A stretch of 64,000 nt of DNA from Strigamia acuminata (lineage: Eukaryota; Arthropoda; Chilopoda; Geophilomorpha; Linotaeniidae): NCBI GenBank assembly GCA_949358305.1, contig OX442319.1:11098001-11162000 (forward strand). The letters are read 5' to 3'. Positions 16,047 to 58,180 of this stretch are shown piece after piece. Under the pieces are notes generated by a model that saw nothing but the letters and a program-made list of their open reading frames with translations, searched no databases and was not told the DNA's origin. The stretch's first letter is position 1, and each line of letters opens with the position of its first letter. The translations under genes were made by a program, and so were the position numbers.

Positions 16047-16313
16047 TGTAGAACCTATAAGGCTACCACAACACACAGCAGATGCTCATATCTGCTTGCC
16101 GCTGTTGGTGTAGAATCTCCCAAAAATCCTTAAATATTCTGTCGGTGGCAGGAAAAATGTGGTTGTGTAGGAATAATTTATTTGAATCAAATTTTTGTCT
16201 TATGATGGGGTATTAACTGATCCCAGGAGTTATTATGAAAAATCTTCAAAATGGTGTAGAAAACCCCTCTTGGTTTTGACTGATATTATGATTGGTCTTC
16301 AAACAGGACAGTT

Positions 16314-16439: not shown

Positions 16440-16522
16440 AATTATCTTGTTGTTATGGTTGTGTATATTGTTTACTACCTGTAAGCAATAAAATCAGTTT
16501 TAATATAAGTTAAAAAAATTAA

Positions 16523-16843
16523 CTAAATTGGTTGAGTGAACAATATTTTTTGGTTCAAATAATTTTGCAGTTTTATTGGAAGAGACCGGATCCGGTTGGA
16601 ACGACTCTGAATAATGTCGATGGGGATGGGCCTTGCTCTAGCTACCAAAATTCGATGTACGGCCAAACGCGTGGGTAGGTACACATCATAAAAATATCTA
16701 AACATTCTTGGCTAAGATAAAAATAATAATTCAAATGAAATAAAAATAAATTAAAAATAAAATAATAAACTTACTATTAGTAGACGACATAATATAACCA
16801 CAAAAATTAGCAATAGAGCTATAAACAGGAGTAGAATCCACAT
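16523..16843 (-). CDS. Hypothetical small single-pass membrane protein, two exons, 85 aa (unit 1)
   Basis: Exon 1, 16,775-16,843, encodes MWILLLFIALLLIFVVILCR plus three residues, a signal anchor, and ends at a GTAAGT donor in phase 0. Exon 2, 16,523-16,711, starts after TTATCTTAG and encodes a basic tail (PRMFRYFYDVYLPTRLAV onward) to a TAG stop. The intron is 63 bp, like others in this locus. No family recognised. An alternative transcript could splice from GTAGCTAG inside exon 2 to the Cys-rich exon at 16,314. Confidence 0.35.
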
Positions 16844-16989
16844 GATTGGTACGATGAAAAGTGATTTCAAAAAAGTTTTTTTTTTAATTATGGCGTTTTT
16901 TTTGGTCAAGTGACTAAATTAGAATATTTAGATTTTGATTACCATTATCATTATTACTCAAAAATGTCAATTTAGCGTGTATTAAAAAA

Positions 16990-17330
16990 TTTCGGTCCAA
17001 GCCACACACCGCACAACAACCCTAAGGTCATCCCGCTTTGCGGGTGGACTGACCGATTGAGGGAAGGAGGGAGCTGAGTGGAGTGGGAATTAGAGATAGC
17101 GTGAGCGACCACTGTAGAGATATGTGTGAGAGGAAGGTCCTAAGCCTGCAAGGGCAGTTGTGCTTGCTGCTGAGTCTGCTGTTCTCCCTATTCACCACTG
17201 ACACTCACTTGTCAGTAGTATGGCGATGGGCCTGCTACAGCCTCCATGAGTGGCTACATGGGTCGTACTGCCCCCGCCTTGTTAGGCATTCCTAGGATTT
17301 CGGAATAACGAAATTACACAACCCTCGGAA
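16990..17330. other. GC-richer segment of unknown origin
   Basis: Compositionally distinct from its AT-rich surroundings. It begins with a hairpin (CATCCCGCTTTGCGGGTGG) and ends TCCTAGGATTTCGGAATAACG. A 70-codon plus-strand frame (17,083-17,295) lacks any known motif. It may be a decayed non-autonomous retroelement. Copies lie at 33,661-34,001 and 63,620-63,960. Confidence 0.35.
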
Positions 17331-17592
17331 TGAATAAGCGCCAAAGAACAGCTTATTTGATTCTAAGCTTAAATTTGGGGATTGGTTCTTTTGTGATAAG
17401 ATATGTTTTACACAAGAATTGAAGACGTATGGGTATGATTTTATTGAGTTACATGTTTAAAACTATGGTGACCAATTATAAACGTAGTTATTTGCAGCCA
17501 TCCTGTGTGCATATTCCTTCGATGCACACCTATGCGAAAAAATAATGTTCACTGCTGTAATCAATTAAATTTTTACTGAATTCTATTTAATT

Positions 17593-19642
17593 TCAACAAA
17601 CCTTGCCATCATCCCCACAGTCAGTTCTTTCGGGGACCCACATAAGATTTTGCTGGGAACCATCGTCTTTAAGACAAATCACGTAGACACAAGGATCTAG
17701 GGACTTTAGGTACATATCCTACAAAAAAATAAAGTTAAAGAAAAGGTGCTTGAGAAGGTCGAACTGATTATTACCATTGACCCTGCATCGAAATTGTCGC
17801 CATAAGCCATTTTGCAAATATTATCTCTCGTCATAATTGGAACTTCTGGTCCAATTGGTAGATTTGATTGAGGCGAATCAAAAAGGCAAGACGTCTCATC
17901 AGAACTGTTAAATTATTCCATTTAAATATAAACTATTAAACATGAGATTGTGGATTCTCAGGGCACATCGTTTTATATTACTTGAGATGGTTCTGAATTT
18001 GCTCTACCGTTGTGTTACAAAACAACTTGGTGCTCAGACTGATGGGTTGGACGTATGGTGACATTATTCCATCCAAGTCACACTTTTCAGTGTCGTCATG
18101 ATCTGCACTTAATCTAAAGCAAAATTTAAATAGTTAGTAAACATATCATTACCGTAAGTGAGGCTTACAAGTGTCCTATTTCATGAGTTACAACAATTGC
18201 TCCTGCGAAAGTTGGAGCATTGAAATCTTCGACCACTGTCATACTTGCTGACATTTTGTCTTCTGTAAAATCTTGACAAATTCCTCCCGTTGCTGCTATA
18301 CCAAGAACTGCTGAGCTTAGTTCGTCGTCTTCTTTAAGACTTAAATCGAAACTAAAAAAGAGAGAAATTAAAACAGGAGAATATCCATCGGGATTTCCGA
18401 GTCAGGAAGGGAGGATGTGTAGGCTACCCAGTATGCAATACTGCAACGTCATATTTTGGAAATTTCTTCTTTGCCTGTTTTTCTGCGTAGAGCCAATTAC
18501 CGAAACTTGTGACGAACTTTATGGCATCTGGCCTGTTGGGTTCGTGAAATGTATCGCTCATCCATGTCATATCCTTTAATTGTGTTAGTTATTAGTAATA
18601 ATATCGGTTGATGTAATGCTTAGCGTGTTTACACTTAATGCGATCACTCCGGATAATGAAAATTGAACTCTAGGGTTCGAAAACACTTTGTATTTGTTTT
18701 GTACCTGGAAAGAAAAGGGGATTGTTATGTGAAATTATATCAGGCGACGACTTACAATGTTCCAGTATATGCCCAAGTATTTTTTTATGGAAGCTTTTCT
18801 TTCAATCAGGTTGTTGTGAACAATTTGGTCCAGAAAATCGAGCACTTCAATTGTTGCTACGTCGTGTTGAAGTTTGTCTTTGCCGACAGTGGGCTTAGAT
18901 GAAGCTGCAATAATGTCAAACCAAACTTATTAGAAAGCTTAGTGTTTAAGCGTTTGGAAAGTTACTTTTGAAAGTGAAACTTCGGTCAATTTGGTGTCTT
19001 GTTTGTATTATCTTTTTGGTCGCTTTGTGGCGCCCTTGTGAATTGCTAATTACGAATTTGTCATCCACGAAACCATCCTTGAAACAGATAAAATAACGTT
19101 GAAATGGAAACAAAAGTGATTTTAACTTACTAATTGGATTTCCCCATTTTTATGCTCAATGTAGAATGATGCTCTTCCATTCTCGTCAGTGTAAAAGGAA
19201 CCTTCAAGAGGTTCTGATTCCTAGAAGAGAAAAGTTGAATTTTGTTAAAAATTTGGTCAGGTGGTGTTTCAGTGGCGGTTTTTGATACCTTTAAAGTTTT
19301 GTAGTCGATTTGATAGTCGATTTGCTGCTGAAATATTTTAAAGTTGGGCGAAAAAATGGAATTTGCAGGAACAAGTTTGAAAGAATACGTTTTTCCAAAC
19401 ATCGAAAACTGTAGCAGGCCGAATTCATCTTCTGAATCAGACAGTTTAGCCACTTTCAAGTCTTCAACGACACTTTCATCCTCAGTGTTGATGTCTCGTG
19501 GCACCTGTAAGTGTAAAAAACAAGAATTAGTAGCTGTTAAATGCCAGAAAAGTTATTTTTTCAATATAACTCGTACAAAATGAGAGCTGCACTGGTTCCA
19601 AAGGACCAGTGTGCAGATGACAAATGCTCGTACAGACTTCAT
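17593..19642 (-). CDS. Secreted M12B (reprolysin-type) zinc metalloprotease, 11 exons, ~473 aa (unit 1)
   Basis: Exons (minus strand): 19,577-19,642; 19,289-19,504; 19,131-19,220; 18,966-19,077; 18,756-18,904; 18,633-18,704; 18,428-18,573; 18,169-18,351; 17,982-18,113; 17,775-17,904; 17,593-17,718. All junctions are GT-AG and all phases fit. Exon 1 is a signal peptide (MKSVRAFVICTLVLWNQC). Exons 2-4 form a propeptide (GSFYTDENGRASFYI, GFVDDKFVIS). Exon 5 starts the catalytic domain. Exons 8-9 hold the zinc site HEIGHLLSADHD (HExxHxxxxxHD) and the Met-turn GIMSP. The reading frame stops just after CGDDGKVC, so there is no disintegrin or thrombospondin domain. Such stand-alone enzymes are known from arthropod venoms, saliva and reproductive tissue. 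The substrate here is unknown. Confidence 0.85.
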
Positions 19643-20888
19643 TTGTGAATTGCTGATTGACCAACTTAAGCTCAAATTTAAAATTATTTTGCTCGGTTAT
19701 CTTTTTTGTACATCCTTGTTTACAATGTCGATATCATGTTTTCTTTACTTTTATCTAAAAATTATTTTGTTGAGAGGAAGGCTGGGCAGATTATAAAACA
19801 CAAACAGATTTAATTTGGATGTTCTTGAAAATTGGCAAACATTTTAACTTTTAAGTATTCATAATAATTTTATTTAGTTCTGTATTTGCAATTAAATTTA
19901 TGACCAACAACTTTAAACAACTTAATTTTGTCTGTTTCCAAACAGTTTTATAGTTCTAATTTAAAGTGAAAGAGACAAGTAAATTTATTGCACAATTTTC
20001 ACTTGATTGATCAAAGAATTCTATTTTCTTGGCATGTTGCTGGCGGTAGCTGAGTGTTCCGTATATGGGTGGCGGCAATTCGGAAGTTTTACCGGTCCAA
20101 GAAACGCAGTGAGATGGACTGAAAACCTGGATGAATCAAGGGCCTGCAGTTCCAGCTGGTTGCGGAGGACTGCAACAGGTGCGCGAGAGATGCGATAGCT
20201 GCACCAAGTGCCTTGCGTTGCAGGACAGTGATCAGCACGCAGGGGCAGCTGGTCACATCTTGAGCAGATGGTGATGTAAAATGGTGTCACTCGCAGGTTG
20301 AGAAGGAGCAGCCACACGGTTTGAGTTAAAACACAACACTAAAATTTATTCTTCTTAACAGATTGTTACAGTAACGGTTCCCCTTCATCAAATAAATACA
20401 TATACGGTACTTAACTCTTTTTTACAAAGTGGGTCACTGAGTAGTGACCTTAAACACACTTGCTGGACACGAATGAGGTATTTACTTGCCTTTTGCTTTA
20501 TTTTGGTCTTGTTTTGGGAAAATAGTATTGTGAAAACGAATAGTTAATTCTTTAAAATCATTAAGCAAAAAAATATTACTAAGAAACAGTAGGAGGGAAC
20601 CAGCAAAGGGAGGAAGTGCTTAAATTTATGAAAAAGTGAAAATGTAGAAATTGTTGGATAATCGGATGCGAAATGAACGAGCGATTTGTGGTGATCTCGA
20701 TTTAATTCACCACTTAGGAAGTAAATATTAATTATTTCTTAATTAATTTGGCTTGGCACACGCCAAGTCAGATCATGTGACCAAGGGGAGAAAACTTCCC
20801 TAGGCACATATCACCTCAGGTTGGCTGGGGTGAAAACGGCGATTAGCCGTTATGGTGCAATAATCCTTTGTTACACCAGTTCCAGCTA

Positions 20889-20911
20889 ATTGCGCAGATT
20901 ATCTGCGCAAT
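20889..20911. repeat. Perfect 23-bp palindrome
   Basis: ATTGCGCAGAT, one T, then ATCTGCGCAAT: 11-bp arms with a 1-bp centre. The copy is at 50,848-50,870. Function unknown. Confidence 0.85.
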
Positions 20912-21141
20912 ATTGAAGCGTGCCGGGCTCGCGCCCAAGCTTCAATAGGGACTCTGAAATATACAACACAACCCTCAACATCACTGCTTTTTGCTCCTGA
21001 ACAAAAGTATTGATAGAGGACCATGTGATATCCAGTTTCACCAAGCTTGCTTTGTACCAACGTGCGAAGCCAGCTATTCGCGTTAATTAGCCGCCGCTGA
21101 TTCACGCATTCGAGAAGAGAAGTTCCCGTGCCGTCGTGAAC

Positions 21142-21212
21142 CATCGCCATTGCTGACGCGCGAACGTCAGCCATCGCCATCGCTGACACGCGAACGTCAG
21201 CCATCGCCATCG
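21142..21212. repeat. 30-bp minisatellite, 2.4 copies
   Basis: Unit CATCGCCATNGCTGACNCGC plus GAACGTCAGC, GC-rich in AT-rich surroundings. It is flanked by further CG-rich partial copies to about 21,300. Copy at 51,101-51,171. Confidence 0.8.
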
Positions 21213-22264
21213 TACGCCGAACGAACGCCTGCCCGCCGTGAACCACCGCCTTCGAGCCGTCGTACGCCGAGTGGAAGAACTCGCGAGAACCATCGTCGCT
21301 CGCCCGACCATCGTTCGTGAGTTTCCCGAAGACATAGTCTTCAAACAACGCCAGTTGTTAAGCGCCATTACAAGTGCTTTCTACTCGTAACAGTCGTTAC
21401 GAAAATTTCCATTGTTTAATCTCCTTTCAATACTAGTCATTATTATTCTCGTATTTTATTCTCATATCATTGTATTAAAAACTGTAATAAAAAGTCTTCA
21501 TTTGAATTGATAAAACTGTCTTTTTATTCTTTCCTCTTAAAATTAACATTAGATAATTTAAGGCCGCGATATAAGTCTTTTATAGCATTCACCTGCGGTA
21601 ACTCAAGCATATTTATTAGTAATTTGTTTGAAATAACCCGGATCGCAGCAGATTGTTGCAAATTAAATGGTGAAAACGTTGATTCTATGCTCAGCCTAGA
21701 CGCGTGCTGGGCATGGGTCAATCACCAAGTGGTCACACGTTCTGAGGCACCTACACAACTCCACCTAGCAGTGGAACCTTCATTCGAGAATTTACTTGCC
21801 CCTTGGGCATATCGGATCGGATCAAGGGTGACCCAAAACAACAACAGAAATGTGACTGTGCATACTCAGAGCGTTTTTATGAACATGTGCTTTTGACACA
21901 TCCACGAATAACGTATAATTACACAATTCCAATAATTCTATTAAAATATTCATGCAAGATATGCAGACTGACAAGTGACAATACAGACGTCAATTGAATT
22001 CACAATAAAAAAACAAACTAACTGTTAACGTTAGGAAATTGCTTAACTGACTTTGATTCTTGAAACATGAGGTATTAAAACGGGATAATAAGAAGGAATA
22101 ATAGGAATAAAATGGTAGCTGATTTGTTTGCATAAAATAAGTTGTGGTCATTTACAAAAAGAGATATAACATTTTACAACAGTGCGTAAATACATAGGTT
22201 GTGTTAAATTGGTCAGTCAACCAATTATTAGTAATAGAATTGTTACAGACAGTAAAGATAGTTC

Positions 22265-25200
22265 TTATTTAGGATTTAGACATTTTTGGTTAAATCGAGC
22301 ATTATACTTCTGAACAAGAGGAAACATTTGATTAGACATGATGTGCATTAGAAAGAGTAGAGAAATTCCAAGAGTAAGGCCCAATACGTTTCCAATATCG
22401 GAAACCAAAGTTCCGAACGAATACAGGACTTCTTCTTTTATGAACTCAACCTTGTTTGTAAACAAGTGGAATACTCCCACGAACATAGAGAGTGGATTTT
22501 TTTCTGGTATAGTGAATGTGTTAGCTTTGTAAGTCAATCCATGACAAGGTCGTAGACATGCACATTCTTTCTCAACATCAGTCGACAATTGAATTTCATA
22601 ATACAATCTGCGCACCTCTTTGGCCATTGATGAAGAATTGCACATAATTGTGTTCTTCTTGATGGCAAATGGCATACTAGTAAAAACAATACAAAAGGAC
22701 TATTACCGGTAAATTATACTCTTGTTCGAGTCAAGAAGGGCCCTAATTCCCCATTGGTTGAGCCATTTTACTACTAACACCAGACTGTATACTACCACTA
22801 GTAGAAGTAGTTTTGATTTTTATTTATTTTTGTGATTGTTATGACCATTTAAGTTAATATAATTTTGATTTTCTTATTAAAAAATGTTATTTCCATTTAC
22901 AGTAAAGCAATCGATTACAATGTCTGTACATTGGAATGCAATTATGGTGTTTGGGTCTATTTTTTGGATCCCTACACCAGTAAAATGGCTCGACCAATGG
23001 GGAATTAGGGCGTTTCTTCACTCGAACAAGAGTATATTAATACACGTTATTGACTGCATTTTTTTCTAGCATTTGAGCTGCAAGTTATGTTTAAAATTGT
23101 TTATTTATACAGAAATAAATCTGACCTGCAGAGTTGAAGCTTTTTTAGTTTGTTTGCCAAGCAGTTTTGTTTGCAATGATAATATTCAGTCACATTTGAA
23201 GTACATGGGTTTTGAAGAGTGTTCAAGTTTTGCATCTACACAGCAGAAAAAAGAATTATAAAATCACACCTCATTAAACTGATGCAACTTTGCTAGACAT
23301 AGTTGACAAAAGCTTGTTGCATCCAAAAGTCATGACTATCGTTTACTGTAATTACCTTTATTACTTTAAATGACGTTAATGCTGAACGTGAGGAAGAGAG
23401 TTCCATTTTGAATGCATCTGGGAAATTAGGATCTTCAGGTGGATTGAAGTAAAACTGAATCAAAACATAAGCTATTTGTACTGAAAACTTAAAAATAAAA
23501 GAATGTCTTTACATTTGAAACGTCTGGTTTACAAATATTATCCACTTCAAGCATCACAATTATAGCTGCCAACATTGATTGATATTTTTCGGGCGCTATA
23601 GATTTGAAAAAATAATTATGGAATTGGAGGATTCATCGTAAGCGTAATTACCAAATGAATGTTCCATGCAAACACCATCCGTGTAGTTTAGCATGGTCAC
23701 ACGATTGCTATAAATGTCAAAATCGAACATCTGAAAAATTTGTACAAGACAAATAGTCAGTGGCACAACTATTGAGCATAGTGGGCCCGGGCTTCGGTAA
23801 AAAAGAAAGAATAAATCTTTTTTGCTGAGGGCAGAATGGCTAGAAAAATGTCCACGAAACTGATGTATTGATAAAAATAAGTGACTTACATATTTTGCAA
23901 TTGTTTCATGGTCCACCAGTTTAGTTTGAAATTTCTTATGCCATAGCATTTCCACATCAATTTTATTGAAATGCACAAGATCGTAAGCATCTACTTCACA
24001 ATTAGTCGAATTTCTCTCGAGATAATATTTGAAATACTTCTTTTTAATGTGATTGAGTTTTCCATTGTGTGGCCCTGGACAAACAATGATGTTCGGATAT
24101 GTCACGTTTACAGGGTCTTCAACCTTGACTGCTTTCTGAATGGGCCCTGATAAGTATGTGTGCATTCGATTTTGTAGAATGTGACAACAAAATAGAGTGC
24201 AACTAAAATAAATTGCATAGATCCATTTGCTTTTGCTCTCTGCTTTTTCTACGTTTATTTTTTGAGCAAACATTTTGAATCTTGTTTTGTGTTTGTTGAA
24301 GGGAATTTGGAATTTATTAATGAAATTCTTATGGTTGCTACTTTGCAGTCTTCTTATTCTTTTTGCACAGCCAATTAAACAATCAATTAGAGAAAGTATT
24401 GAAAAGCCCAACCAAAGACCAAGATTCCCACCAAAGTCACAGAGTAGACCGATTAAGTCGTAGAGCAATCTTTCTTGAAACACAGTTATGTGTTGATCAG
24501 CTAAGTGGAAATTGAACCGAAGTTTGTTAGAACTTGTCATATCGATTTTTATTTCGTAAACTTCATTTGTACAGCTTCTCGTACAGTTACAGTCATTAGT
24601 TGGTGTTATTCCTCTTACTCTTGCCTGATGTGTTTTAACTAATTTGGCTGTAGCTTCAGAATTGTTACAGGGATTGTCACATGGCTTCACATATGAATAT
24701 GGCAAGCTAATAGTGGGAAACAACAACAATTCTTTTTTATCAGAAATTAAATATTTTTTTATGGAGTATTAAATTTTTATTCATTTTTCGTTGGTTTTAA
24801 TGGTTTTTAACTATATTTTAATGACTTTTTATTTTCATCAGAATATAAACCTAATGTTTGATTATCCAAACAATTCGGTTTTATGAACACTCATGTCTCC
24901 CAATTAGTTCGGATGATCGAGACTCTACTGAACTAGAAAAGCAGGAGTGTTTATATCAGTGATGAAATTATGAACTTTTCAAAATATCAGTAGCTGTCAC
25001 AACAACAACACATTAGGCATACGGTAGTTTATTATATTAGTAATAGGATGAAAACAAGGATTTAATGGACAGCAGCAAAGTGAGTTATGCCTTACCAACA
25101 GGAATCATTCTTGAATTTCTGACTAATGCATCGTATACCACACGATATAAACTCTTCGTTCGGCACACATGTCTCTTCTTTTGTGCTTAAAAAGGAATAC

Positions 25201-28200
25201 TGGAAAAAAATGCATGAGGACAGTATACTCTGTGTGGTGCGGACGTAAGACGAGTCCAGAAATTAATATTTTATTGAGGAGAATTTAGTTCACTATTCAC
25301 TTATTCTTATTCATTTAAGCAAACTTATTGGCTTAACCAATTTGATGCACCTATTAATTTTCTGGCCAATTGTGGCCTTGAACTGTTTCTTTCCCCTTTT
25401 TAATCACAATTTTTATTCATTTAGTGTTTAAGAAACCAATAAGAAACCTTGAAAGAGTCACATCACTAAAGCAGAAAAGCACAGGTGTAAACACACGTGT
25501 GACCCATTTTTATGGTAATTCATAGAATAAAAATTTAGTATGTTTTGTAAATGTAATCAGCAATGTTTGCTTTCCTGCATCTTCCAACAAAGTGGTTAAA
25601 CATGTAAACCAAATTAGTCCTTTTGGGAACCCTCAGTTTCTACAGCAACCGTGGCATTCTTTTTTCAAAATTTGAAAACTTTATAAAATTATAAATTATA
25701 TATATATATTATTATATTATATTATATATTATAAATTATAAAAGTAATGTAATAGATTATTAAATTACTATTTTTACTTTTGTAACGATGAATCCTAAAG
25801 ATATTTGTGATTGAGTTGTAATCACTGAACCGAATTGAAATTCAAATGGGACATCACATGCGACCTAAAATGGGATTTTGTAAAATGTAGATTCAAATAT
25901 AAAATAAATATTATTTGTATTCTGTACCAAATAACTTAGAACAGGTGGAGTCATCTCCAATTTAATTGGCATTGTGACTTCCGAATGTTCCAATGACCTG
26001 TTAACTAAGAAGTAAATGTAACACAATGAAACATACAGAAATCCAAAATATTATAATTTGGTTCACAGTTCTAAGCAAAACGTCATGGAAAAAAAATTTT
26101 AGCAACAATTAGATTGTCATAAAAGTTCCGAAACGGTATATTTAACCGACTCCATTTTAGTGACGCCTAAATGTAAAAAACCAATTTCTTCATAGGTTTG
26201 AGTGACAAAATTTTAACAATCCGTTTGCTTATTAGTGACGTACTCACCATTCCGCCGGTAATACGTCGCTGAAACAGTGACTTATCAATAAGCCACTTCG
26301 TGACTGATATGGTCTTCGCCAGTGCAATCAGGGGACTGAAGACACTGGTTTGGGACGCATACTCACGTAAATAACGAGAACTCCCCTAATATTGGTTGGT
26401 TGGCCTTTATTAATGTTGTCTAGGGGTGTGGGAAATCCCGTTACCCGTTGCGGGGGTGCCACGAAGGCACGCCGCACCGGCAACCGACCCGTCACACACT
26501 GGGCGGGAGCCCAATGGGTGACGTGGTCGGTTCGACTAAACATTCGTGTCGTACTCACCTACGACCCGCGTATCCGCTCATGGAGGCGCTATGGAATCCA
26601 CCATAGCACTGAGTATCAACCTGGTGAATGGTGAGGAGTACAGAGTCCAACCCGGGTCACGTCTTGTCCCTCAGATGAATACTTTCTCCTCGGCAACTGA
26701 CACACGTCCTTCTCAGTCCGTGTCCAGTGCAACTCTCTCCACTCCTCTCCTCACCACACCACTCCACTCCCTCCTCCCCGGGCTAGGTCAATCACCCACA
26801 GAGGGGATGACCTTTGGGACCGTATGGAGAAGAATTATTTGTTCTCCCCTTTCGTGGCCCACCGAGACGGCAACATTGTTCCTGTGACCACGTGGAACCA
26901 GAGGCGCCTTGAGAATTCCATTGTTACATTTTGGAACTCGATGAGTCACATCGAGTTATTTGATTGTAAGGCATAAAGCCTTTGAATAAACTGCTTTATC
27001 CCTTTTATATCTTGCAACGAGTATTATTTGAGTAAACACAGCTCACCAGTAAGTAAACCATTGGCTATTTATCAATACCGACCAAGGACACGACATGTTA
27101 CCGTTATGGCAAACACAATACATTGCTGAAACGTTCTGTTTGGGCCTGTGTACTGGTGTGTCTGTCTGTTGTGTAGCTAGTTGTGGTGTTGAGGAGAGGA
27201 GCCAGTGACGAGCCATCTTGGGTGAGGGTCAAGACAAGAGTCATCTTTTATTACGTCTACTTTTACAAGGGGGGTGACGTCTGGTGCGCCACAAACAAAA
27301 TGGGTCATTTCTATGGAGTTCAAACACGTGAACTGACTGCTGACAGTAATCAGTTCAGTCTAGAACAGCATTTTGCATCCTTAATCAGACCACGGCGGCC
27401 ATTAGGCCTCATGACACGTGTGGTCAGTAATTCATTCCTGCCATGCCGCCGTAATGTTCACAGAGAACATGGGGCGGACGTGGCCACTACGGATGCTCAG
27501 GTTCCGGAAGTCAAATGTGGACTGGGAGAGTCACATATCACTTTAGCAAAAGCCACTTTAGCGATGGTACGTTTTAGTGGCTAGTACGCTAAAGTGGCTG
27601 TTGCTAAAGTGTAGTCACTAAGGTGAACTATCTCTAATACTTAACTGGATAATTGCGTACATGTACCACACGGTGTAACTCTGTGTTTTTGTTGTAACTC
27701 CAAAGGTTTGTTTGGCTATATCAACATGCAAAAATAAAATTGATATTTAAACATAAAAATATTCACCTTACCTTGTAGTTAGCGTTTCCAAAAGTCAACT
27801 TTTCAATTATATCAATACGGTAGTCCAAATTTAAAGCTTTTGCCAGGTCAAAATCAGGTAACTCTAGGAGGCTGAACAGATTTGCACTTGTATTCTTTTG
27901 TTTCCTATAATCTCTTGTGTAAGTATTATGTTCTGAGCAAATAGATATAGGTGGGAATTGAAAGTGTTCTATTTTCCTTTGGTATACATCAACAGCCTTT
28001 GGTTCTGTCAGGAAGTATGAGATGCGATCATGCATTTGGTACAAATAAAACAGCAAACACACGACGACGAGAAATGTCCAAAAAAAACGAAATGTATGTG
28101 AACGTGTGCGATCTAGAAGGATGTAAAACTCTGGTGCTACATTCTTATCTTCATTGATAGACTCGATGATTGAAGATGCAATTACTTGGCGATGTCTTCT

Positions 28201-28221
28201 GAATCTGCGTTCATTGATCAT
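22265..28221 (-). CDS. Two-module (tandem) DEG/ENaC sodium-channel protein, 11 exons, ~788 aa (unit 1)
   Basis: DEG/ENaC subunits normally have one TM1-ectodomain-TM2 module and assemble as trimers. Exons: 27,772-28,221; 27,667-27,715 (tentative); 25,928-26,004; 25,778-25,864; 25,096-25,199; 23,890-24,706; 23,652-23,730; 23,513-23,595; 23,356-23,454; 23,126-23,235; 22,265-22,676. They sum to 2,367 nt in one frame. Module 1 has TM1 at about residues 65-85, post-TM1 FQFPPISIC, a Cys-rich thumb ([19 protein letters not shown]) and TM2 with GFS in [12 protein letters not shown] ~45-residue basic linker follows without a stop. Module 2 has TM1 [14 protein letters not shown], post-TM1 [10 protein letters not shown], a thumb ([14 protein letters not shown]) and TM2 [11 protein letters not shown]. 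Both keep the GxS selectivity-filter pattern. Intron phases are 0-1-0-0-2 in each module. The HG gating motif before TM1 is not seen. An acceptor-like AG precedes the ATG, so a 5' noncoding exon is likely. Confidence 0.8.
22719..23032. mobile_element. MITE with ~65-bp inverted repeats, TA target (mariner-like)
   Basis: Starts CTCTTGTTCGAGTCAAGAAG and ends with the complement ACTCGAACAAGAG. TA flanks both sides. The arms also share CCTAATTCCCCATTGGT and GAGCCATTTTACT. It is 314 bp, noncoding, inside the last intron of the DEG/ENaC gene. Copy in unit 2 at 52,678-52,991. Confidence 0.8.
25693..25742. repeat. AT microsatellite
   Basis: Run of TATATATATATATTATTATATTATA type in the intron between the DEG/ENaC exons at 25,096-25,199 and 25,778-25,864. 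Copy at 55,652-55,701. Confidence 0.85.
26417..27094 (+). mobile_element. Probable solo LTR of a gypsy-type element
   Basis: 678 bp starting TGTCTAGGGGTG, with ATGT on both sides (26,413-26,416 and 27,095-27,098). Its 3' part has AAGGCATAAAGCCTTTGAATAAA, seen here as a hairpin plus polyadenylation signal. This closely resembles the end of the gypsy LTR at 36,376 (AAGGCATAAAGCCTGGTGAATAAA), and both end near ACACGACA/ACGCGACA. It has no internal region, so it is a solo LTR left by recombination. It lies in a DEG/ENaC intron. Copy in unit 2 at 56,376-57,053. Confidence 0.65.
27539..27611. repeat. Inverted repeat with 25-bp arms
   Basis: Left arm CACTTTAGCAAAAGCCACTT... and right arm ...AAGTGGCTGTTGCTAAAGTG, with a 23-bp loop. 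CTTTAGC blocks recur in each arm. Located in a DEG/ENaC intron. Copy at 57,498-57,570. Confidence 0.7.
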
Positions 28222-28224
28222 CTA

Positions 28225-29389
28225 CATACGTACAAGGAAGTTTGTATTAATATCTTGTTGTTTGTGTTTTCTAGGGATAGTTTTGTTCGTAATTTTTTTT
28301 TGTGATTACTGGGGTTTTTTTGTCGAATGCTGAAGGAGTTGTGACAGTCTGGCAGACTGTGGTCACTTCCTCACCAATCAGCGGGCCCCTGCAGCTCCAT
28401 CTATTGAAGAGGAGCTGTGACCACGAATGCTGCTACATTCTTTCTTGGACTTTGTTGAAAGCCGTGGTGAAGCATGTTTTGTATGTTTTAATATATACGA
28501 TTTTTAATTCATTACAGATTCAGAATGAGATTTCGATGGCATTTTGAGAGATCCAGGTTGAATTCAGAAAGATTCAGATGATAAAAAATCAAGAAAAATG
28601 ATACTTTTTTTTCCCTAAAATTTTATCTTCTGAAGATATAATTTTTAATTTTGATGACAAAGCATAAACAGACCGGGGGAATCCAAAAATCCGGTCAGTT
28701 TTGCAAAATTCTCAACATTTCCCGCAGACCGTGGTTGAAATGTTAAATCTTAGATTATTTTTTGCAAATAAAAAAATCAATCTTGTTCTAATCAAAAAAT
28801 TATGATTTCAATACTCAACAAGCTCTTAGTGATGTTATTTGATATTGCAGTTCGTTCTGCAGGCTTGAATAACTCTTACCAAATTGTATGTGTTCTGTCA
28901 CTCTTTTCTTTATGTGGAGATAAGGCCTGACGGGTGAGGAACTAGTTGACTCGGATTTTTATTAAGTTGTGTCTAAACCGGGAAAAATTTTGTTTTAAGC
29001 ACTTGGGTCATGCAACTGCTCTGACCAATGGTGGCCCGAATCGCATCAAAACTTAATCATACAGCAATGCAAAACTGACATCAACATTAAACAAAACATG
29101 GAAAGCTTATTACCATCAGATAAAAATATAAGATGACAGCTCTGTAAAAGTCTCGTTTTAAACATTATAATTCTTTTCCGCTGTTGGGAGTGACAGATTA
29201 CTAAAGAAATAAACTACAATTATTATGTAGAATGGTTTCTTCAGGCTTGTTTGGTTAATCACATGTCAGCAGTAAGATTCTCAGAAACTATGTTGTTTTG
29301 TATAGAAAACAACCATTTTCTCATTAATTAATTTATTATCTGTATGAACATTATAATTTACTGAATGCAGCCTTTCCTGGTCGATCAAT
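28225..29389. other. Unassigned upstream region of the DEG/ENaC gene (unit 1)
   Basis: AT-rich with no convincing coding sequence. It holds small inverted repeats (GACAGTCTGGCAGACTGT near 28,342) and polyT/polyA runs. Promoter and 5' UTR of the DEG/ENaC gene should lie here, but I see no clear core element. Confidence 0.4.
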
Positions 29390-29590
29390 TTATTGACCAG
29401 ACTTTGTGTTTTTTAATTCTAGCTTGTCAAAATGATGCCTCATTTTCCGTGTTATTATTTTCTCATGACAGGTTTCTTCCAAATCAAACTTATAATTTTG
29501 GTTTGAAAGTGTAAACACATAAAATATTAATATTAAATTATAAAAACTGCAACAGCAACACAGAAGCAACAGCAGTGCTTGTATATCCAT
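29390..29590 (-). CDS. Possible small secreted peptide, 66 aa (unit 1)
   Basis: Starts MDIQALLLLLCCCCSFYNLI, a strongly hydrophobic signal-like N-terminus, followed by a charged 40-residue tail with one cysteine. No family recognised. It could be a first exon or chance. Copy at 59,349-59,549. The stretch 29,591-30,529 beyond it has no supportable feature. Confidence 0.2.
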   Translation of the reverse strand: MDIQALLLLLCCCCSFYNLILIFYVFTLSNQNYKFDLEETCHEKIITRKMRHHFDKLELKNTKSGQ

Positions 29591-30529
29591 ATTTCAGTAA
29601 ACTTTTTGATAATTGGAATCTATGTTCCCACAATATGGAGTATCTCATAATTCTGGTTCACAAACCAATACTCACAGCAAATACAAACAACAACAAAACC
29701 TCACTGTCAACTCACACTACCACATCTAAATAAACAAATCAAACATTCCTTTATTTCACTCCGGATGTACCCATAGTTCTAAGTTTCAGCACGGTATAGA
29801 CTGTGTCCCTTTGAAATTGCTTAATCTTGTCACTGCTTGGCCACCCGAGTGTTACCATGGGTAAGACCATACCGTCACAATATTTTATTTTTGGAATTAG
29901 AGGCCCATGAAATTCAGAGTCCCAAGGTGGAAGGGAATACTACCTGGGTAGCGAAGCACAATACCAGTTTTGCCCTGCTTGCTGACAACCTATGCTACAC
30001 CGCTGGTTCTGATGGGTTTATTCAGGAACCTTTCAAAACACGTTCCTGTGCATTCGGGCAAATGTCGTAACTTCGATTGTCACAGCAATCCGAAAATAAT
30101 ACAACTGACGTCTTTCATTAAGAAAAAAAAACAGAATTTAAAACCATGTAATAATTACATTTTTTGTTGAAATACTAACTATTGACAGTATAGAGAAAGT
30201 GGCATTCACATAAATTTGAATGTTATTTTGCAAATCCACTGCCTTTTTACTGTGACTTGATGCAGATTTGCAAAACTCGAATATGATTGAAAATCTCTCC
30301 CATAATTAACACAATGAATTGAATATTGTCACGCGGTAGAACCGTACATAAGTTACATGGATTAATTAATGTGAGAATGATTTGGACAACCGGTTAAGAT
30401 GAATGTCCGAACTAGACTCATTTATTAGCATAAAACATAGAACAAATCATAAAACATAGAACAAGTCTCGGAAAAACCCCCAGGGGCGCTATTGCTTACA
30501 ATTAACATCCCCTTTATCCACGTAACAAT

Positions 30530-31182
30530 TAGGGTTGCACTGAATGCCAAAAAGGCTGAATAACCAAATACCGAATATTCGGAACCGAATACCATGGCCG
30601 AATATTCGGTATTCGGCCGAATAACCAAATATTTAAAAAAAAATTTGATTGCTGAAAAAAAGCCATTTTTGGCTTAAAAAATTTACTTTTTACCTAATAA
30701 ATGCAGTTTTTACGTTCTAAAATATTCTTTTTACCCAAAAAATGTAATTTTTTAAGTTTAAAATGTCCTTTTTCTGAAAAAAATGCAATTTTTGCCTAAA
30801 AAGTCAACTTTGCCTCAATAGTGCAATTTTTGCCTAAAAAGTGCAATTTTTGCCTCTGAAAAAACAATTTTTACAAAAAAATGCAATTATTGCTTTAAAA
30901 ATATCATTTTTAAAATACATATTGAATTTTTATTGTAAAATTTGTGTTTTTTGGGTAATAATTGCAATTTAATAGTGAAAATCAAATTATTTTGTATAAA
31001 AAATACAATTTTGACCTGTAAATGTGAAGTTGTTGCACTAAAAATTCAAATAATTCTAACTTTATCATTATTATGTATTCGGCCGAATAACAGATTGATA
31101 TTCGGCCAAATACATAATATTCGGTTTTTAGGCCGAATAGGCCGAATAACCGAATATAAAACAAATATTCGGTGCAGCCCTA
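30530..31182. mobile_element. hAT-type MITE with an internal 20-bp tandem array
   Basis: Starts TAGGGTTGCACTGAAT and ends ATTCGGTGCAGCCCTA. It is flanked by a perfect 8-bp target duplication GTAACAAT (30,522-30,529 and 31,183-31,190), typical of hAT elements. Subterminal regions repeat ATTCGGCCGAAT motifs. The centre (about 30,650-30,960) is a degenerate 20-bp array of AAAAAGTGCAATTTTTGCCT type. It encodes no transposase. Copy at 60,489-61,141. Confidence 0.9.
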
Positions 31183-31447
31183 GTAACAATATAAACATGA
31201 AAAAATACATACTGTTTTAAAGTCCACTCAGGTGAAAACGTGGCACTCGATCCACTCAAAAACTCCGCATTGCAGCTGTATTGATGTTTTGTGAAAGTTG
31301 ACCAGTAATTACTATTTTAAAAAATTCATGAGATTTCTGAGAATTGTAATGACTGGTTTGTGACTTACCGTAGATATCACAAATGTCAAATTTCATTTTG
31401 TGAAGTAGCAAAATACTCAATTCCACATCACATTAGATTGTACAATT

Positions 31448-31629
31448 CAGGGCCGGCGCGAGGGGTGAGGCGATGAGGCGGTTGCCTCAGGTGGCATATT
31501 TCTAGGGGCGGCGTCTTTGGGCGCACAATCAGATTTTTTTCCAACAAAAAAAATATTCTTTTTTACTGTTCAAAAGGGCGGCATATGCCTTGCTCGTCTC
31601 AGGTGGAAAAATGTGTTGCACCGGCCCTG
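31448..31629. mobile_element. Short MITE with CAGGGCCGGYGC termini
   Basis: Left end CAGGGCCGGCGC, right end GCACCGGCCCTG, 182 bp. Internal GCCTCAGGTGG motifs face each other. Ends of this type are common in hAT-like MITEs, but I find no matching 8-bp target duplication. It sits about 80 bp before the unit junction. Copy at 61,407-61,588. Confidence 0.55.
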
Positions 31630-32214
31630 TTTGTAGTGACCACTGGAGTGGGTCAAACGGAGCATTTTCTCCGTGACCCACTTGCACGTGTGGTGGGGGA
31701 GTCGAGAACGCTACAAATGCCAGAAATTTCAATATTTCAGTAAAATATTACTGCGTAGCAGTGTAAATAGAAATATTATCTAATAATAAACATGATTTCA
31801 TTGTAATTCCTCGTCATTTTCATTGCCAACACAACAATTGGGTAAATTTTAACACCGTGATAATGTTTTTGTGAGCACCTTACGTTTGGATCAGTTGTGA
31901 AAGCAGAAATTGCAAGTCAGTCGCTGATTTGGCTTATTAAAAGGTCTATTCCTCGATAGGAAGATCTGGAAATGGGGATGAAATGGTTTGCCAAGTTCCC
32001 CTCATAGATAATTTTTGAAGAAAAGACATCAACATGTTAACAAATTGCAGTAAGTGTAAAAGGGGGAAACCCCCTTTTGTTAGAAGTATACGACTATATT
32101 TCAAAAGTTGCTTCCGCCCCCATTAGAGCTCCGTACATGTTGTATCTTATCGATGAGTTGCACGACGGACGTTTCACGTGGTTAGGATCCAAACGTTGCT
32201 AACTCGTTCAAAAG

Positions 32215-52223: not shown

Positions 52224-55200
52224 TTATTTAGGATTTAGACATTTTTGGTTAAATCGAGCATTATACTTCTGAACAAGAGGAAACATTTGATTAGACATGA
52301 TGTGCATTAGAAAGAGTAGAGAAATTCCAAGAGTAAGGCCCAATACGTTTCCAATATCGGAAACCAAAGTTCCGAACGAATACAGGACTTCTTCTTTTAT
52401 GAACTCAACCTTGTTTGTAAACAAGTGGAATACTCCCACGAACATAGAGAGTGGATTTTTTTCTGGTATAGTGAATGTGTTAGCTTTGTAAGTCAATCCA
52501 TGACAAGGTCGTAGACATGCACATTCTTTCTCAACATCAGTCGACAATTGAATTTCATAATACAATCTGCGCACCTCTTTGGCCATTGATGAAGAATTGC
52601 ACATAATTGTGTTCTTCTTGATGGCAAATGGCATACTAGTAAAAACAATACAAAAGGACTATTACCGGTAAATTATACTCTTGTTCGAGTCAAGAAGGGC
52701 CCTAATTCCCCATTGGTTGAGCCATTTTACTACTAACACCAGACTGTATACTACCACTAGTAGAAGTAGTTTTGATTTTTATTTATTTTTGTGATTGTTA
52801 TGACCATTTAAGTTAATATAATTTTGATTTTCTTATTAAAAAATGTTATTTCCATTTACAGTAAAGCAATCGATTACAATGTCTGTACATTGGAATGCAA
52901 TTATGGTGTTTGGGTCTATTTTTTGGATCCCTACACCAGTAAAATGGCTCGACCAATGGGGAATTAGGGCGTTTCTTCACTCGAACAAGAGTATATTAAT
53001 ACACGTTATTGACTGCATTTTTTTCTAGCATTTGAGCTGCAAGTTATGTTTAAAATTGTTTATTTATACAGAAATAAATCTGACCTGCAGAGTTGAAGCT
53101 TTTTTAGTTTGTTTGCCAAGCAGTTTTGTTTGCAATGATAATATTCAGTCACATTTGAAGTACATGGGTTTTGAAGAGTGTTCAAGTTTTGCATCTACAC
53201 AGCAGAAAAAAGAATTATAAAATCACACCTCATTAAACTGATGCAACTTTGCTAGACATAGTTGACAAAAGCTTGTTGCATCCAAAAGTCATGACTATCG
53301 TTTACTGTAATTACCTTTATTACTTTAAATGACGTTAATGCTGAACGTGAGGAAGAGAGTTCCATTTTGAATGCATCTGGGAAATTAGGATCTTCAGGTG
53401 GATTGAAGTAAAACTGAATCAAAACATAAGCTATTTGTACTGAAAACTTAAAAATAAAAGAATGTCTTTACATTTGAAACGTCTGGTTTACAAATATTAT
53501 CCACTTCAAGCATCACAATTATAGCTGCCAACATTGATTGATATTTTTCGGGCGCTATAGATTTGAAAAAATAATTATGGAATTGGAGGATTCATCGTAA
53601 GCGTAATTACCAAATGAATGTTCCATGCAAACACCATCCGTGTAGTTTAGCATGGTCACACGATTGCTATAAATGTCAAAATCGAACATCTGAAAAATTT
53701 GTACAAGACAAATAGTCAGTGGCACAACTATTGAGCATAGTGGGCCCGGGCTTCGGTAAAAAAGAAAGAATAAATCTTTTTTGCTGAGGGCAGAATGGCT
53801 AGAAAAATGTCCACGAAACTGATGTATTGATAAAAATAAGTGACTTACATATTTTGCAATTGTTTCATGGTCCACCAGTTTAGTTTGAAATTTCTTATGC
53901 CATAGCATTTCCACATCAATTTTATTGAAATGCACAAGATCGTAAGCATCTACTTCACAATTAGTCGAATTTCTCTCGAGATAATATTTGAAATACTTCT
54001 TTTTAATGTGATTGAGTTTTCCATTGTGTGGCCCTGGACAAACAATGATGTTCGGATATGTCACGTTTACAGGGTCTTCAACCTTGACTGCTTTCTGAAT
54101 GGGCCCTGATAAGTATGTGTGCATTCGATTTTGTAGAATGTGACAACAAAATAGAGTGCAACTAAAATAAATTGCATAGATCCATTTGCTTTTGCTCTCT
54201 GCTTTTTCTACGTTTATTTTTTGAGCAAACATTTTGAATCTTGTTTTGTGTTTGTTGAAGTGAATTTGGAATTTATTAATGAAATTCTTATGGTTGCTAC
54301 TTTGCAGTCTTCTTATTCTTTTTGCACAGCCAATTAAACAATCAATTAGAGAAAGTATTGAAAAGCCCAACCAAAGACCAAGATTCCCACCAAAGTCACA
54401 GAGTAGACCGATTAAGTCGTAGAGCAATCTTTCTTGAAACACAGTTATGTGTTGATCAGCTAAGTGGAAATTGAACCGAAGTTTGTTATAACTTGTCATA
54501 TCGATTTTTATTTCGTAAACTTCATTTGTACAGCTTCTCGTACAGTTACAGTCATTAGTTGGTGTTATTCCTCTTACTCTTGCCTGATGTGTTTTAACTA
54601 ATTTGGCTGTAGCTTCAGAATTGTTACAGGGATTGTCACATGGCTTCACATATGAATATGGCAAGCTAATAGTGGGAAACAACAACAATTCTTTTTTATC
54701 AGAAATTAAATATTTTTTTATGGAGTATTAAATTTTTATTCATTTTTCGTTGGTTTTAATGGTTTTTAACTATATTTTAATGACTTTTTATTTTCATCAG
54801 AATATAAACCTAATGTTTGATTATCCAAACAATTCGGTTTTATGAACACTCATGTCTCCCAATTAGTTCGGATGATCGAGACTCTACTGAACTAGAAAAG
54901 CAGGAGTGTTTATATCAGTGATGAAATTATGAACTTTTCAAAATATCAGTAGCTGTCACAACAACAACACATTAGGCATACGGTAGTTTATTATATTAGT
55001 AATAGGATGAAAACAAGGATTTAATGGACAGCAGCAAAGTGAGTTATGCCTTACCAACAGGAATCATTCTTGAATTTCTGACTAATGCATCGTATACCAC
55101 ACGATATAAACTCTTCGTTCGGCACACATGTCTCTTCTTTTGTGCTTAAAAAGGAATACTGGAAAAAAATGCATGAGGACAGTATACTCTGTGTGGTGCG

Positions 55201-58180
55201 GACGTAAGACGAGTCCAGAAATTAATATTTTATTGAGGAGAATTTAGTTCACTATTCACTTATTCTTATTCATTTAAGCAAACTTATTGGCTTAACCAAT
55301 TTGATGCACCTATTAATTTTCTGGCCAATTGTGGCCTTGAACTGTTTCTTTCCCCTTTTTAATCACAATTTTTATTCATTTAGTGTTTAAGAAACCAATA
55401 AGAAACCTTGAAAGAGTCACATCACTAAAGCAGAAAAGCACAGGTGTAAACACACGTGTGACCCATTTTTATGGTAATTCATAGAATAAAAATTTAGTAT
55501 GTTTTGTAAATGTAATCAGCAATGTTTGCTTTCCTGCATCTTCCAACAAAGTGGTTAAACATGTAAACCAAATTAGTCCTTTTGGGAACCCTCAGTTTCT
55601 ACAGCAACCGTGGCATTCTTTTTTCAAAATTTGAAAACTTTATAAAATTATAAATTATATATATATATTATTATATTATATTATATATTATAAATTATAA
55701 AAGTAATGTAATAGATTATTAAATTACTATTTTTACTTTTGTAACGATGAATCCTAAAGATATTTGTGATTGAGTTGTAATCACTGAACCGAATTGAAAT
55801 TCAAATGGGACATCACATGCGACCTAAAATGGGATTTTGTAAAATGTAGATTCAAATATAAAATAAATATTATTTGTATTCTGTACCAAATAACTTAGAA
55901 CAGGTGGAGTCATCTCCAATTTAATTGGCATTGTGACTTCCGAATGTTCCAATGACCTGTTAACTAAGAAGTAAATGTAACACAATGAAACATACAGAAA
56001 TCCAAAATATTATAATTTGGTTCACAGTTCTAAGCAAAACGTCATGGAAAAAAAATTTTAGCAACAATTAGATTGTCATAAAAGTTCCGAAACGGTATAT
56101 TTAACCGACTCCATTTTAGTGACGCCTAAATGTAAAAAACCAATTTCTTCATAGGTTTGAGTGACAAAATTTTAACAATCCGTTTGCTTATTAGTGACGT
56201 ACTCACCATTCCGCCGGTAATACGTCGCTGAAACAGTGACTTATCAATAAGCCACTTCGTGACTGATATGGTCTTCGCCAGTGCAATCAGGGGACTGAAG
56301 ACACTGGTTTGGGACGCATACTCACGTAAATAACGAGAACTCCCCTAATATTGGTTGGTTGGCCTTTATTAATGTTGTCTAGGGGTGTGGGAAATCCCGT
56401 TACCCGTTGCGGGGGTGCCACGAAGGCACGCCGCACCGGCAACCGACCCGTCACACACTGGGCGGGAGCCCAATGGGTGACGTGGTCGGTTCGACTAAAC
56501 ATTCGTGTCGTACTCACCTACGACCCGCGTATCCGCTCATGGAGGCGCTATGGAATCCACCATAGCACTGAGTATCAACCTGGTGAATGGTGAGGAGTAC
56601 AGAGTCCAACCCGGGTCACGTCTTGTCCCTCAGATGAATACTTTCTCCTCGGCAACTGACACACGTCCTTCTCAGTCCGTGTCCAGTGCAACTCTCTCCA
56701 CTCCTCTCCTCACCACACCACTCCACTCCCTCCTCCCCGGGCTAGGTCAATCACCCACAGAGGGGATGACCTTTGGGACCGTATGGAGAAGAATTATTTG
56801 TTCTCCCCTTTCGTGGCCCACCGAGACGGCAACATTGTTCCTGTGACCACGTGGAACCAGAGGCGCCTTGAGAATTCCATTGTTACATTTTGGAACTCGA
56901 TGAGTCACATCGAGTTATTTGATTGTAAGGCATAAAGCCTTTGAATAAACTGCTTTATCCCTTTTATATCTTGCAACGAGTATTATTTGAGTAAACACAG
57001 CTCACCAGTAAGTAAACCATTGGCTATTTATCAATACCGACCAAGGACACGACATGTTACCGTTATGGCAAACACAATACATTGCTGAAACGTTCTGTTT
57101 GGGCCTGTGTACTGGTGTGTCTGTCTGTTGTGTAGCTAGTTGTGGTGTTGAGGAGAGGAGCCAGTGACGAGCCATCTTGGGTGAGGGTCAAGACAAGAGT
57201 CATCTTTTATTACGTCTACTTTTACAAGGGGGGTGACGTCTGGTGCGCCACAAACAAAATGGGTCATTTCTATGGAGTTCAAACACGTGAACTGACTGCT
57301 GACAGTAATCAGTTCAGTCTAGAACAGCATTTTGCATCCTTAATCAGACCACGGCGGCCATTAGGCCTCATGACACGTGTGGTCAGTAATTCATTCCTGC
57401 CATGCCGCCGTAATGTTCACAGAGAACATGGGGCGGACGTGGCCACTACGGATGCTCAGGTTCCGGAAGTCAAATGTGGACTGGGAGAGTCACATATCAC
57501 TTTAGCAAAAGCCACTTTAGCGATGGTACGTTTTAGTGGCTAGTACGCTAAAGTGGCTGTTGCTAAAGTGTAGTCACTAAGGTGAACTATCTCTAATACT
57601 TAACTGGATAATTGCGTACATGTACCACACGGTGTAACTCTGTGTTTTTGTTGTAACTCCAAAGGTTTGTTTGGCTATATCAACATGCAAAAATAAAATT
57701 GATATTTAAACATAAAAATATTCACCTTACCTTGTAGTTAGCGTTTCCAAAAGTCAACTTTTCAATTATATCAATACGGTAGTCCAAATTTAAAGCTTTT
57801 GCCAGGTCAAAATCAGGTAACTCTAGGAGGCTGAACAGATTTGCACTTGTATTCTTTTGTTTCCTATAATCTCTTGTGTAAGTATTATGTTCTGAGCAAA
57901 TAGATATAGGTGGGAATTGAAAGTGTTCTATTTTCCTTTGGTATACATCAACAGCCTTTGGTTCTGTCAGGAAGTATGAGATGCGATCATGCATTTGGTA
58001 CAAATAAAACAGCAAACACACGACGACGAGAAATGTCCAAAAAAAACGAAATGTATGTGAACGTGTGCGATCTAGAAGGATGTAAAACTCTGGTGCTACA
58101 TTCTTATCTTCATTGATAGACTCGATGATTGAAGATGCAATTACTTGGCGATGTCTTCTGAATCTGCGTTCATTGATCAT
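52224..58180 (-). CDS. Two-module (tandem) DEG/ENaC protein, 11 exons (unit 2)
   Basis: Copy of 22,265-28,221 at an offset of 29,959. Exons: 57,731-58,180; 57,626-57,674 (tentative); 55,887-55,963; 55,737-55,823; 55,055-55,158; 53,849-54,665; 53,611-53,689; 53,472-53,554; 53,315-53,413; 53,085-53,194; 52,224-52,635. Only two coding differences were noticed, both amino-acid-changing and both in the exon that fuses the modules. One is Ser to Tyr in DMTS(S/Y)NKLRF before TM2. The other is Pro to His in FQI(P/H)FNKH in the linker. Both modules remain open, with GFS and GIS filter motifs intact. Confidence 0.8.
52678..52991. mobile_element. Mariner-like MITE, unit 2 copy
   Basis: Same insertion, ends and TA flanks as 22,719-23,032, so it predates duplication of the array. 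Confidence 0.8.
56376..57053 (+). mobile_element. Probable solo LTR, unit 2 copy
   Basis: Copy of 26,417-27,094 with the same ATGT flanks, inherited through the unit duplication. Confidence 0.65.

What the first reader, a model, noticed from the sequence alone, without database searches (positions are those of the whole stretch)
22265..28221. A DEG/ENaC gene encoding two channel subunits in one polypeptide
Seen: exon 23,890-24,706 is open for 272 codons. It encodes, in order, a DEG/ENaC thumb and TM2 ([11 protein letters not shown]), a ~45-residue basic linker, then a new TM1 ([14 protein letters not shown]) and post-TM1 [10 protein letters not shown]. Upstream exons supply the matching TM1 half; downstream exons supply the second TM2 ([11 protein letters not shown]). 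Known: family members have two TMs and form trimers. Inference: a 788-aa, four-TM concatemer, which would force unusual stoichiometry (for example three concatemers giving six subunit modules, or one plus a partner). This may be an undescribed architecture.
Basis: partly seen in the sequence, partly recalled or inferred. Interest (0 to 1): 0.88.

Follow-up and report, generated by a model that had tools for sequence, protein, structure and literature searches.

The report
Centipede channel genes with fused subunits
In what is probably a centipede genome, two copies of a sodium-channel subunit have been fused into one four-membrane-pass protein, and this unusual fused gene has multiplied into a family of hundreds, which makes a large set of candidate sensory receptors.

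Summary
On the minus strand, 28221 to 22265, an 11-exon gene reads into 795 aa (reader: 788). It is two complete DEG/ENaC modules in one frame, joined inside one 817-nt exon (24706-23890) that encodes TM2 of module 1, a ~45-aa basic linker and TM1 of module 2. Intron phases are 0-1-0-0-2 in both modules, as expected of a tandem duplication whose touching exons fused.

It is not one odd locus. A Strigamia maritima (centipede) protein model has the same architecture (805 aa, ~52% identity). Searching the window's own 237-Mb genome with five fusion exons gave 417 loci with a stop-free TM2-linker-TM1 exon. In twelve 10-kb loci, 5 show both a TM1 exon upstream and a TM2 exon downstream; 7 show one of the two. 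Sampled exons evolve under constraint (median dN/dS 0.37; linker 0.49). Module 1s and module 2s separate on a small tree, which fits one old fusion and later expansion. Closest solved structures are the centipede channels BRTNaC1 and PDPNaC1, the latter a published homotrimer.

How two-module chains fill a three-fold pore is untested; I favour one chain plus one two-TM partner. No transcripts were available, and structure prediction failed. New variant of a known kind, high interest.

The parts
27772..28221 (-). exon 1: N-terminus, TM1 of module 1 (about 28039-28095), post-TM1 FPPISIC; phase 0 out
   Evidence: 52% identical to Strigamia (tblastn)
27646..27715 (-). exon 2 (module 1), phase 0 in, 1 out; GTCTQL motif
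   Evidence: donor chosen by Strigamia homology
25928..26004 (-). exon 3 (module 1), phase 1 in, 0 out
25778..25864 (-). exon 4 (module 1), phase 0 in, 0 out
25096..25199 (-). exon 5 (module 1), phase 0 in, 2 out
23890..24706 (-). exon 6, the fusion exon: TM2 of module 1, linker, TM1 of module 2
   Evidence: PF00858 in two stretches
24367..24423 (-). TM2 of module 1 with G-F-S motif (residues 363-365)
24226..24366 (-). linker, residues 377-423, rich in Lys and Arg
24175..24225 (-). TM1 of module 2 ([17 protein letters not shown])
23652..23730 (-). exon 7 (module 2), phase 0 in, 1 out
23513..23595 (-). exon 8 (module 2), phase 1 in, 0 out
23356..23454 (-). exon 9 (module 2), phase 0 in, 0 out
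23126..23235 (-). exon 10 (module 2), phase 0 in, 2 out
22265..22676 (-). exon 11: thumb and TM2 of module 2 (about 22352-22408) with G-I-S, C-terminus, stop
52224..58180 (-). second copy of the whole gene, same 11 exons at +29959

Best explanation
Supported by sequence: this is one gene for a four-TM DEG/ENaC polypeptide made of two complete channel-subunit modules. It arose when two tandem copies of a six-exon, two-TM subunit gene fused, the last exon of one with the first exon of the next. The fusion is old (a Strigamia protein model shares it and falls inside the family), probably happened once, and the fused gene then multiplied: 417 loci with a stop-free fusion exon in this genome. Inferred topology: N-terminus, linker and C-terminus in the cytosol, two extracellular domains. 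Inferred mechanism: each chain supplies two neighbouring positions, M1 and M2, of a trimeric cation channel; the cytosolic linker (34-52 residues in 75 scored loci) is long enough for neighbours. The third position is most likely filled by an ordinary two-TM DEG/ENaC subunit, some of which the genome appears to hold, so that many variable chains share a few partners. I infer sensory (chemo-, pH- or thermo-) receptors from family size, tandem arrays, wide divergence and the antennal setting of a studied relative. The confidence given is for architecture and family. For one chain plus partner I give about 0.4; for a sensory role about 0.6.
For: Gene model with closed frame and identical phase series 0-1-0-0-2 in both modules. 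Relative T1ITL7_STRMM, 805 aa, 52-53% identity; by module 51.8% and 52.1%, while M1 and M2 are about 21-26% identical to each other. Own genome: 143 matches to this fusion exon, 129 without a stop and spanning TM2-linker-TM1; four more queries add 78, 15, 145 and 50, union 417 (counted in 85, 89). In twelve 10-kb loci (the lowest-ranked twelve of the 112 in my list; the only one of six requests that was answered) each fusion exon has on its strand a TM1-type exon upstream, a TM2-type exon downstream, or both: both in 5 of 12. L086 shows fusion, TM2 end, TM1 start, fusion: two neighbouring four-TM genes. dN/dS median 0.37, 425 of 426 pairs below 1; linker pooled 0.49. Clean M1/M2 split, local support 0.95, 28 M1 and 13 M2 sequences. 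G-x-S in M1 and M2. Each module matches BRTNaC1 best in PDB (1e-15 and 2e-13), then PDPNaC1.
Against: No transcript was seen. The only relative outside this genome is an automatic gene model, and a second Strigamia model (T1IS61, 514 aa) lacks the fusion exon. AlphaFold2 on the two Strigamia rows failed (mean pLDDT 29), so the fold rests on sequence homology. In 7 of 12 ten-kb loci only one flanking TM exon was found, and three of the twelve (L037-L039) score alike throughout. Pairs in the dN/dS table are not independent, and one pair (L021/L024) is above 1. The tree has no two-TM outgroup and covers a chosen part of the loci. 14 of 143 rows are partial or hold a stop. Nothing here tests assembly or function.
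Confidence: 0.88

Rival explanations
1. Two adjacent ordinary two-TM genes, joined only on paper or by read-through; each is really made as its own protein.
For: AATAAA occurs four times within the fusion exon, two of them in the linker, and an in-frame ATG with A at -3 stands in the linker of the window copy. No transcript was seen.
Against: No stop between the modules in 417 loci. Linkers keep frame, basic charge (+2 to +14 in 75 of 75 scored) and dN/dS below 1. The Met is not conserved and 24 of 75 linkers have none. The exon is 65% AT, so AATAAA is not surprising.
Confidence: 0.05
2. Three chains assemble so that the three M1 modules form one pore and the three M2 modules a second one, a tethered pair of trimeric channels.
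For: G-x-S is kept in both modules and M1 and M2 form separate groups. PDPNaC1 is a homotrimer (PMC12714832, abstract).
Against: Three linkers would have to bridge two separate three-fold bundles (inference). M2 differs at the pore end: after G-x-S, 8 of 10 distinct M2 exons read lack the acidic residue, which M1 has as Asp or Glu in 60 of 75 loci (Asn in 13). No structural test was possible.
Confidence: 0.25
3. The chain is cut in the linker after synthesis and works as two ordinary subunits in a forced 1:1 supply.
For: The linker is basic and by prediction cytosolic.
Against: I saw no shared motif across subfamilies by eye in the linkers; no cleavage-site search was run.
Confidence: 0.1
4. 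One module per chain sits in a normal trimer and the other hangs free or acts as a regulator.
For: Module 2 is less canonical: GN or GS in place of GG before the pore motif.
Against: G-x-S is kept in all 10 distinct full-length M2 pore exons; of two short fragments there, one has G-L-C and is of unclear origin.
Confidence: 0.2

Closest known systems
BRTNaC1 (broad-range thermal receptor 1, Scolopendra; PDB 8ymr and others)
   Same: Best solved-structure match to each module; similar length per module (431 aa); centipede DEG/ENaC
   Different: One module per chain, by its length; the H352 named in PMC12804983 (abstract) is not matched in M1 or M2 by eye
PDPNaC1 (proton-dissociation-permeated sodium channel, Scolopendra; PDB 9jf7; PMC12714832)
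   Same: Second best match to each module; two TM helices per subunit
   Different: 421 aa, nine exons, homotrimer (abstract and passages read); here two modules in 11 exons
Strigamia maritima T1ITL7 (UniRef, 'Uncharacterized protein')
   Same: Same two-module architecture end to end, about 52% identity
   Different: A predicted protein; no study of it was seen. The model T1IS61 of the same species lacks the fusion exon
Engineered ASIC concatemers (laboratory constructs; titles and abstracts in the listing)
   Same: Subunits joined in one chain to fix stoichiometry
   Different: Made by hand; here natural, old and present in hundreds of loci
Insect pickpocket (PPK) family
   Same: Expanded arthropod DEG/ENaC family with proposed taste roles (start of abstract of PMC12304301, search listing)
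   Different: 31 members in Drosophila by that abstract; one module each (recalled)

Membership tests
DEG/ENaC (Pfam PF00858) | Match to the ASC profile above the curated cut-off (23.6 bits) | tested here: met
   Whole 152 bits, M1 100, M2 65.5; 5 of 5 fusion exons above cut-off in two stretches each
DEG/ENaC (Pfam PF00858) | G-x-S selectivity-filter motif in TM2 (motif recalled) | tested here: met
   M1 GFS, M2 GIS in the window; M1 in 75 of 76 intact-frame loci by pattern and L081; M2 in 10 of 10 distinct full-length exons
DEG/ENaC (Pfam PF00858) | Two TMs per polypeptide | tested here: not met
   Four TMs by sequence; this is the novelty, and each module alone has two
DEG/ENaC (Pfam PF00858) | HG motif before TM1 (motif recalled) | tested here: not met
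   No HG before TM1 of module 1 or in the linker (sequence)
DEG/ENaC (Pfam PF00858) | Trimeric assembly and cation conduction | not testable with these tools
   needs expression
Centipede BRTNaC1/PDPNaC1-like channels | Closest relatives by sequence among solved structures | tested here: met
Centipede BRTNaC1/PDPNaC1-like channels | Residues tied to BRTNaC1 acid and heat gating (H352, D217, E218; abstract of PMC12804983) | tested here: inconclusive
   By eye: H352 falls in a gap of M1 and on Thr in M2; the D217 column is a gap in the window M1 but Asp in Strigamia M1; that region aligns poorly

The most novel reading that the evidence does not exclude
Centipedes built a chemoreceptor system out of DEG/ENaC channels: several hundred fused M1-M2 chains, each with its own tuning, pair with one or a few shared two-TM subunits into a 2+1 channel, a DEG/ENaC counterpart of the insect odorant receptor plus co-receptor logic. 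The fusion fixes two of three positions, so each gene makes a defined receptor.
Probability: 0.27. Interest if true: 0.96.

Novelty: new variant of a known kind. Interest (0 to 1): 0.91.

Why it matters
DEG/ENaC channels are textbook trimers of two-TM subunits (recalled), and stoichiometry is studied with man-made concatemers. Here such a concatemer appears to be natural, shared with Strigamia, and multiplied into hundreds of loci, which may make it one of the larger gene families of an arthropod (my guess, not compared here). It gives a natural test of how two-module chains fill a three-fold pore, and a candidate for what a lineage without insect-type odorant receptors (recalled) uses to sense its world. 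The Strigamia genome paper lists 'sodium transport' among functions enriched in lineage-specific duplicates (PMC4244043, section 9), which a family like this could explain.

Tried and rejected
Read-through of two neighbouring genes: rejected as main reading. Pseudogene: not supported for the window copies or for most loci read, though 14 of 143 rows are partial or hold a stop. Triple fusions: one of the two pairs of fusion exons closer than 5 kb (4334 bp apart) has a TM2-end and a TM1-start exon between them, so they are two genes; no other pair was examined. Structure prediction of the Strigamia protein failed (two-row alignment), so no fold search was run. Literature: the listings (10 searches, all used; titles and starts of abstracts of the papers listed, often only the top 10-20 of more) showed no natural DEG/ENaC concatemer and no centipede DEG/ENaC expansion; only open-licence PMC papers are covered, and supplements could not be read. 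Protein-database searches gave only T1ITL7, T1IS61 and one weak hit (P0003), so no orthologue outside Strigamia was found at that sensitivity. Whether Strigamia has more members I cannot tell.

Limits of the 417 count: five queries, each scoring about 150 candidates. Rows typed by hand from the listings: 143 of 143, 150 of 151 (whose list was cut), 38 of 150 (those I judged new or close), 150 of 150, 55 of 55. A row counts if it has no stop and reaches from at most 85 to at least 165 of the query; for I dropped 14 partial or stop-bearing rows by eye. The count includes one locus (C8:11168937) whose exon looks interrupted by an insertion. Seven loci lie on contigs numbered 30 or higher (C50 is 27.7 kb) and several loci are identical to others (70 distinct of 76 exon sequences read), so some may be haplotype copies. 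The profile was built from the same loci that it then matched.

Full report
What is there. On the minus strand between 28221 and 22265 lies an 11-exon gene for a 795-residue protein. The upstream exons 1-5 give the first part of module 1, and exons 7-11 the rest of module 2. Pfam PF00858 hits each module alone above its cut-off (on the earlier 790-aa model).

How it arose. The introns interrupt module 1 in phases 0, 1, 0, 0, 2 and module 2 in phases 0, 1, 0, 0, 2. By position and phase, exons 1-5 answer to the back of exon 6 and exons 7-10, and the front of exon 6 to exon 11. The simplest reading is a tandem duplication of a six-exon gene in which the last exon of the first copy and the first exon of the second became one exon. 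The modules are now about 21-26% identical to each other.

It is a family of hundreds. The window belongs to a 237.5-Mb assembly of 157 contigs. Searching that genome with the fusion exon gave 143 matches, of which 129 have no stop and span TM2, linker and TM1 (14 partial or stop-bearing rows dropped). Four divergent members used as queries added 78, 15, 145 and 50 new loci (only 38 of the 150 rows were entered). The union is 417. Each search scores only about 150 candidates, so members were probably missed; against that, seven loci lie on contigs numbered 30 or higher, several are identical to others, and one is interrupted. Most lie on C1, C6 and C8; of 354 neighbour distances among the first 367 loci, 170 are under 30 kb.

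The neighbours are in the right order. I held 77 fusion-exon loci, all, 12 of them with 10 kb. All 77 match a profile of the exon, which was built from these same loci; in one (L058) a stop splits the exon, and a few are partial. In the 12 large loci the nearest listed TM exon upstream of the fusion exon, where there is one, is TM1-type, and the nearest downstream TM2-type; both are seen in 5 of 12 (L034, L040, L042, L043, L045) and one of them in 7 of 12. L034 and L043 overlap, and L037, L038 and L039 score alike throughout. In L034 and L086 neighbouring genes are also seen, head to tail. In L086 two fusion exons 4.3 kb apart are separated by a TM2-end and a TM1-start exon, so they are two genes and not a six-TM one.

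It is coding and constrained. Among 76 fusion exons, 426 pairs with dS between 0.05 and 1 have a median dN/dS of 0.37, and 425 are below 1; the linker alone gives a pooled 0.49. The pairs are not independent, so this is a description, not a test. In 75 of the 76 exons that could be scored, linkers are 34-52 residues long with net charge +2 to +14 (an earlier scoring had 74 loci and one misplaced value of 66). The Met that could start module 2 is Ile in Strigamia, Arg in 4 and Ile in 1 of the 25 closest loci; 24 of 75 linkers have no Met. Some of the others have another in-frame Met, so a second start cannot be excluded for every gene.

Probably one fusion, then expansion. A tree of 41 TM2-region sequences (28 of M1, 13 of M2; chosen from the loci at hand, duplicates removed) splits M1 from M2 cleanly with local support 0.95, and both Strigamia modules fall beside the window type within their groups. 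The tree has no two-TM outgroup. As it stands it says that subfamilies were already diverging before the split from Strigamia.

What it works like. The best solved-structure matches of each module are BRTNaC1 and PDPNaC1 of the centipede Scolopendra. PDPNaC1 is a homotrimer from antennal sensory neurons (PMC12714832: abstract, passages and section 13 read). G-x-S is present in M1 in 75 of 76 by pattern and in the remaining one, L081, and in M2 in all 10 distinct full-length exons read, while one of two short fragments has G-L-C. So both modules probably line a pore. Soon after the motif M1 carries Asp or Glu in 60 of 75 loci and Asn in 13; M2 has Glu there in 2 of 10 and none in the window. 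A chain of two modules cannot fill a three-fold pore evenly. I think the most likely answer is one chain plus one ordinary two-TM subunit. The genome seems to hold such genes: on contig C11 a TM1-type hit at 5269237 is followed by a TM2-type hit at 5270538, with no fusion exon listed there by my five searches. Three chains making two pores cannot be excluded.

Function. Size, arrays, wide divergence and the antennal setting of a relative suggest sensory receptors; this is inference. The Strigamia genome paper lists sodium transport and taste among functions enriched in its lineage-specific duplicates (PMC4244043, section 9), and a word search of its main text found no 'ENaC', 'degenerin', 'pickpocket' or 'sodium channel'.

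The organism. Not named by the tools. The nearest full-length relative and the nearest solved structures are from centipedes, so a centipede is likely.

Bottom line.

Noticed in passing
15040-31710, 31711-61669, 61670-64000: Tandem array with a unit of about 16.7 kb (the second enlarged by an LTR element, the third cut by the window end); the first two units each hold one copy of the gene; 99.7% identity between the 14.76-kb blocks. Further copies of the fusion exon lie at G000:C8:11212815 (intact) and, as two pieces about 12 kb apart, at 11168937 and 11181601, as if interrupted by an insertion.
   Followed up: partly
36376-49242: LTR retroelement of about 12.9 kb inside unit 2: two identical 820-bp LTRs, short target-site repeat (ACCT), long frames 37275-40430 and 40391-44533 (gag- and pol-like by my reading, not searched) and a third frame 45574-48375. 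Described only.
   Followed up: partly
1333-6532: Copia-like element by my reading (not searched): one 1375-codon frame (2109-6236) between two identical 224-bp repeats.
   Followed up: no
24706-23890 and 54665-53849: In the first ~14.1 kb of the aligned block the two copies differ at two sites only, both C to A, both in the fusion exon and both changing an amino acid.
   Followed up: no
P0002 (Strigamia T1IS61): Gene model that seems to join module 1 exons 1-4 to module 2 exons 7-11 (by the window's exon borders), with about 20 extra residues; because phases match in both modules, exon skips between them would stay in frame and could make two-TM products.
   Followed up: partly
G000:C4:7358317-7376957 and G000:C11:5265863-5277589: Clusters of PF00858 exons without a fusion exon listed by my five searches, possibly ordinary two-TM DEG/ENaC genes and possible partners.
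   Followed up: no
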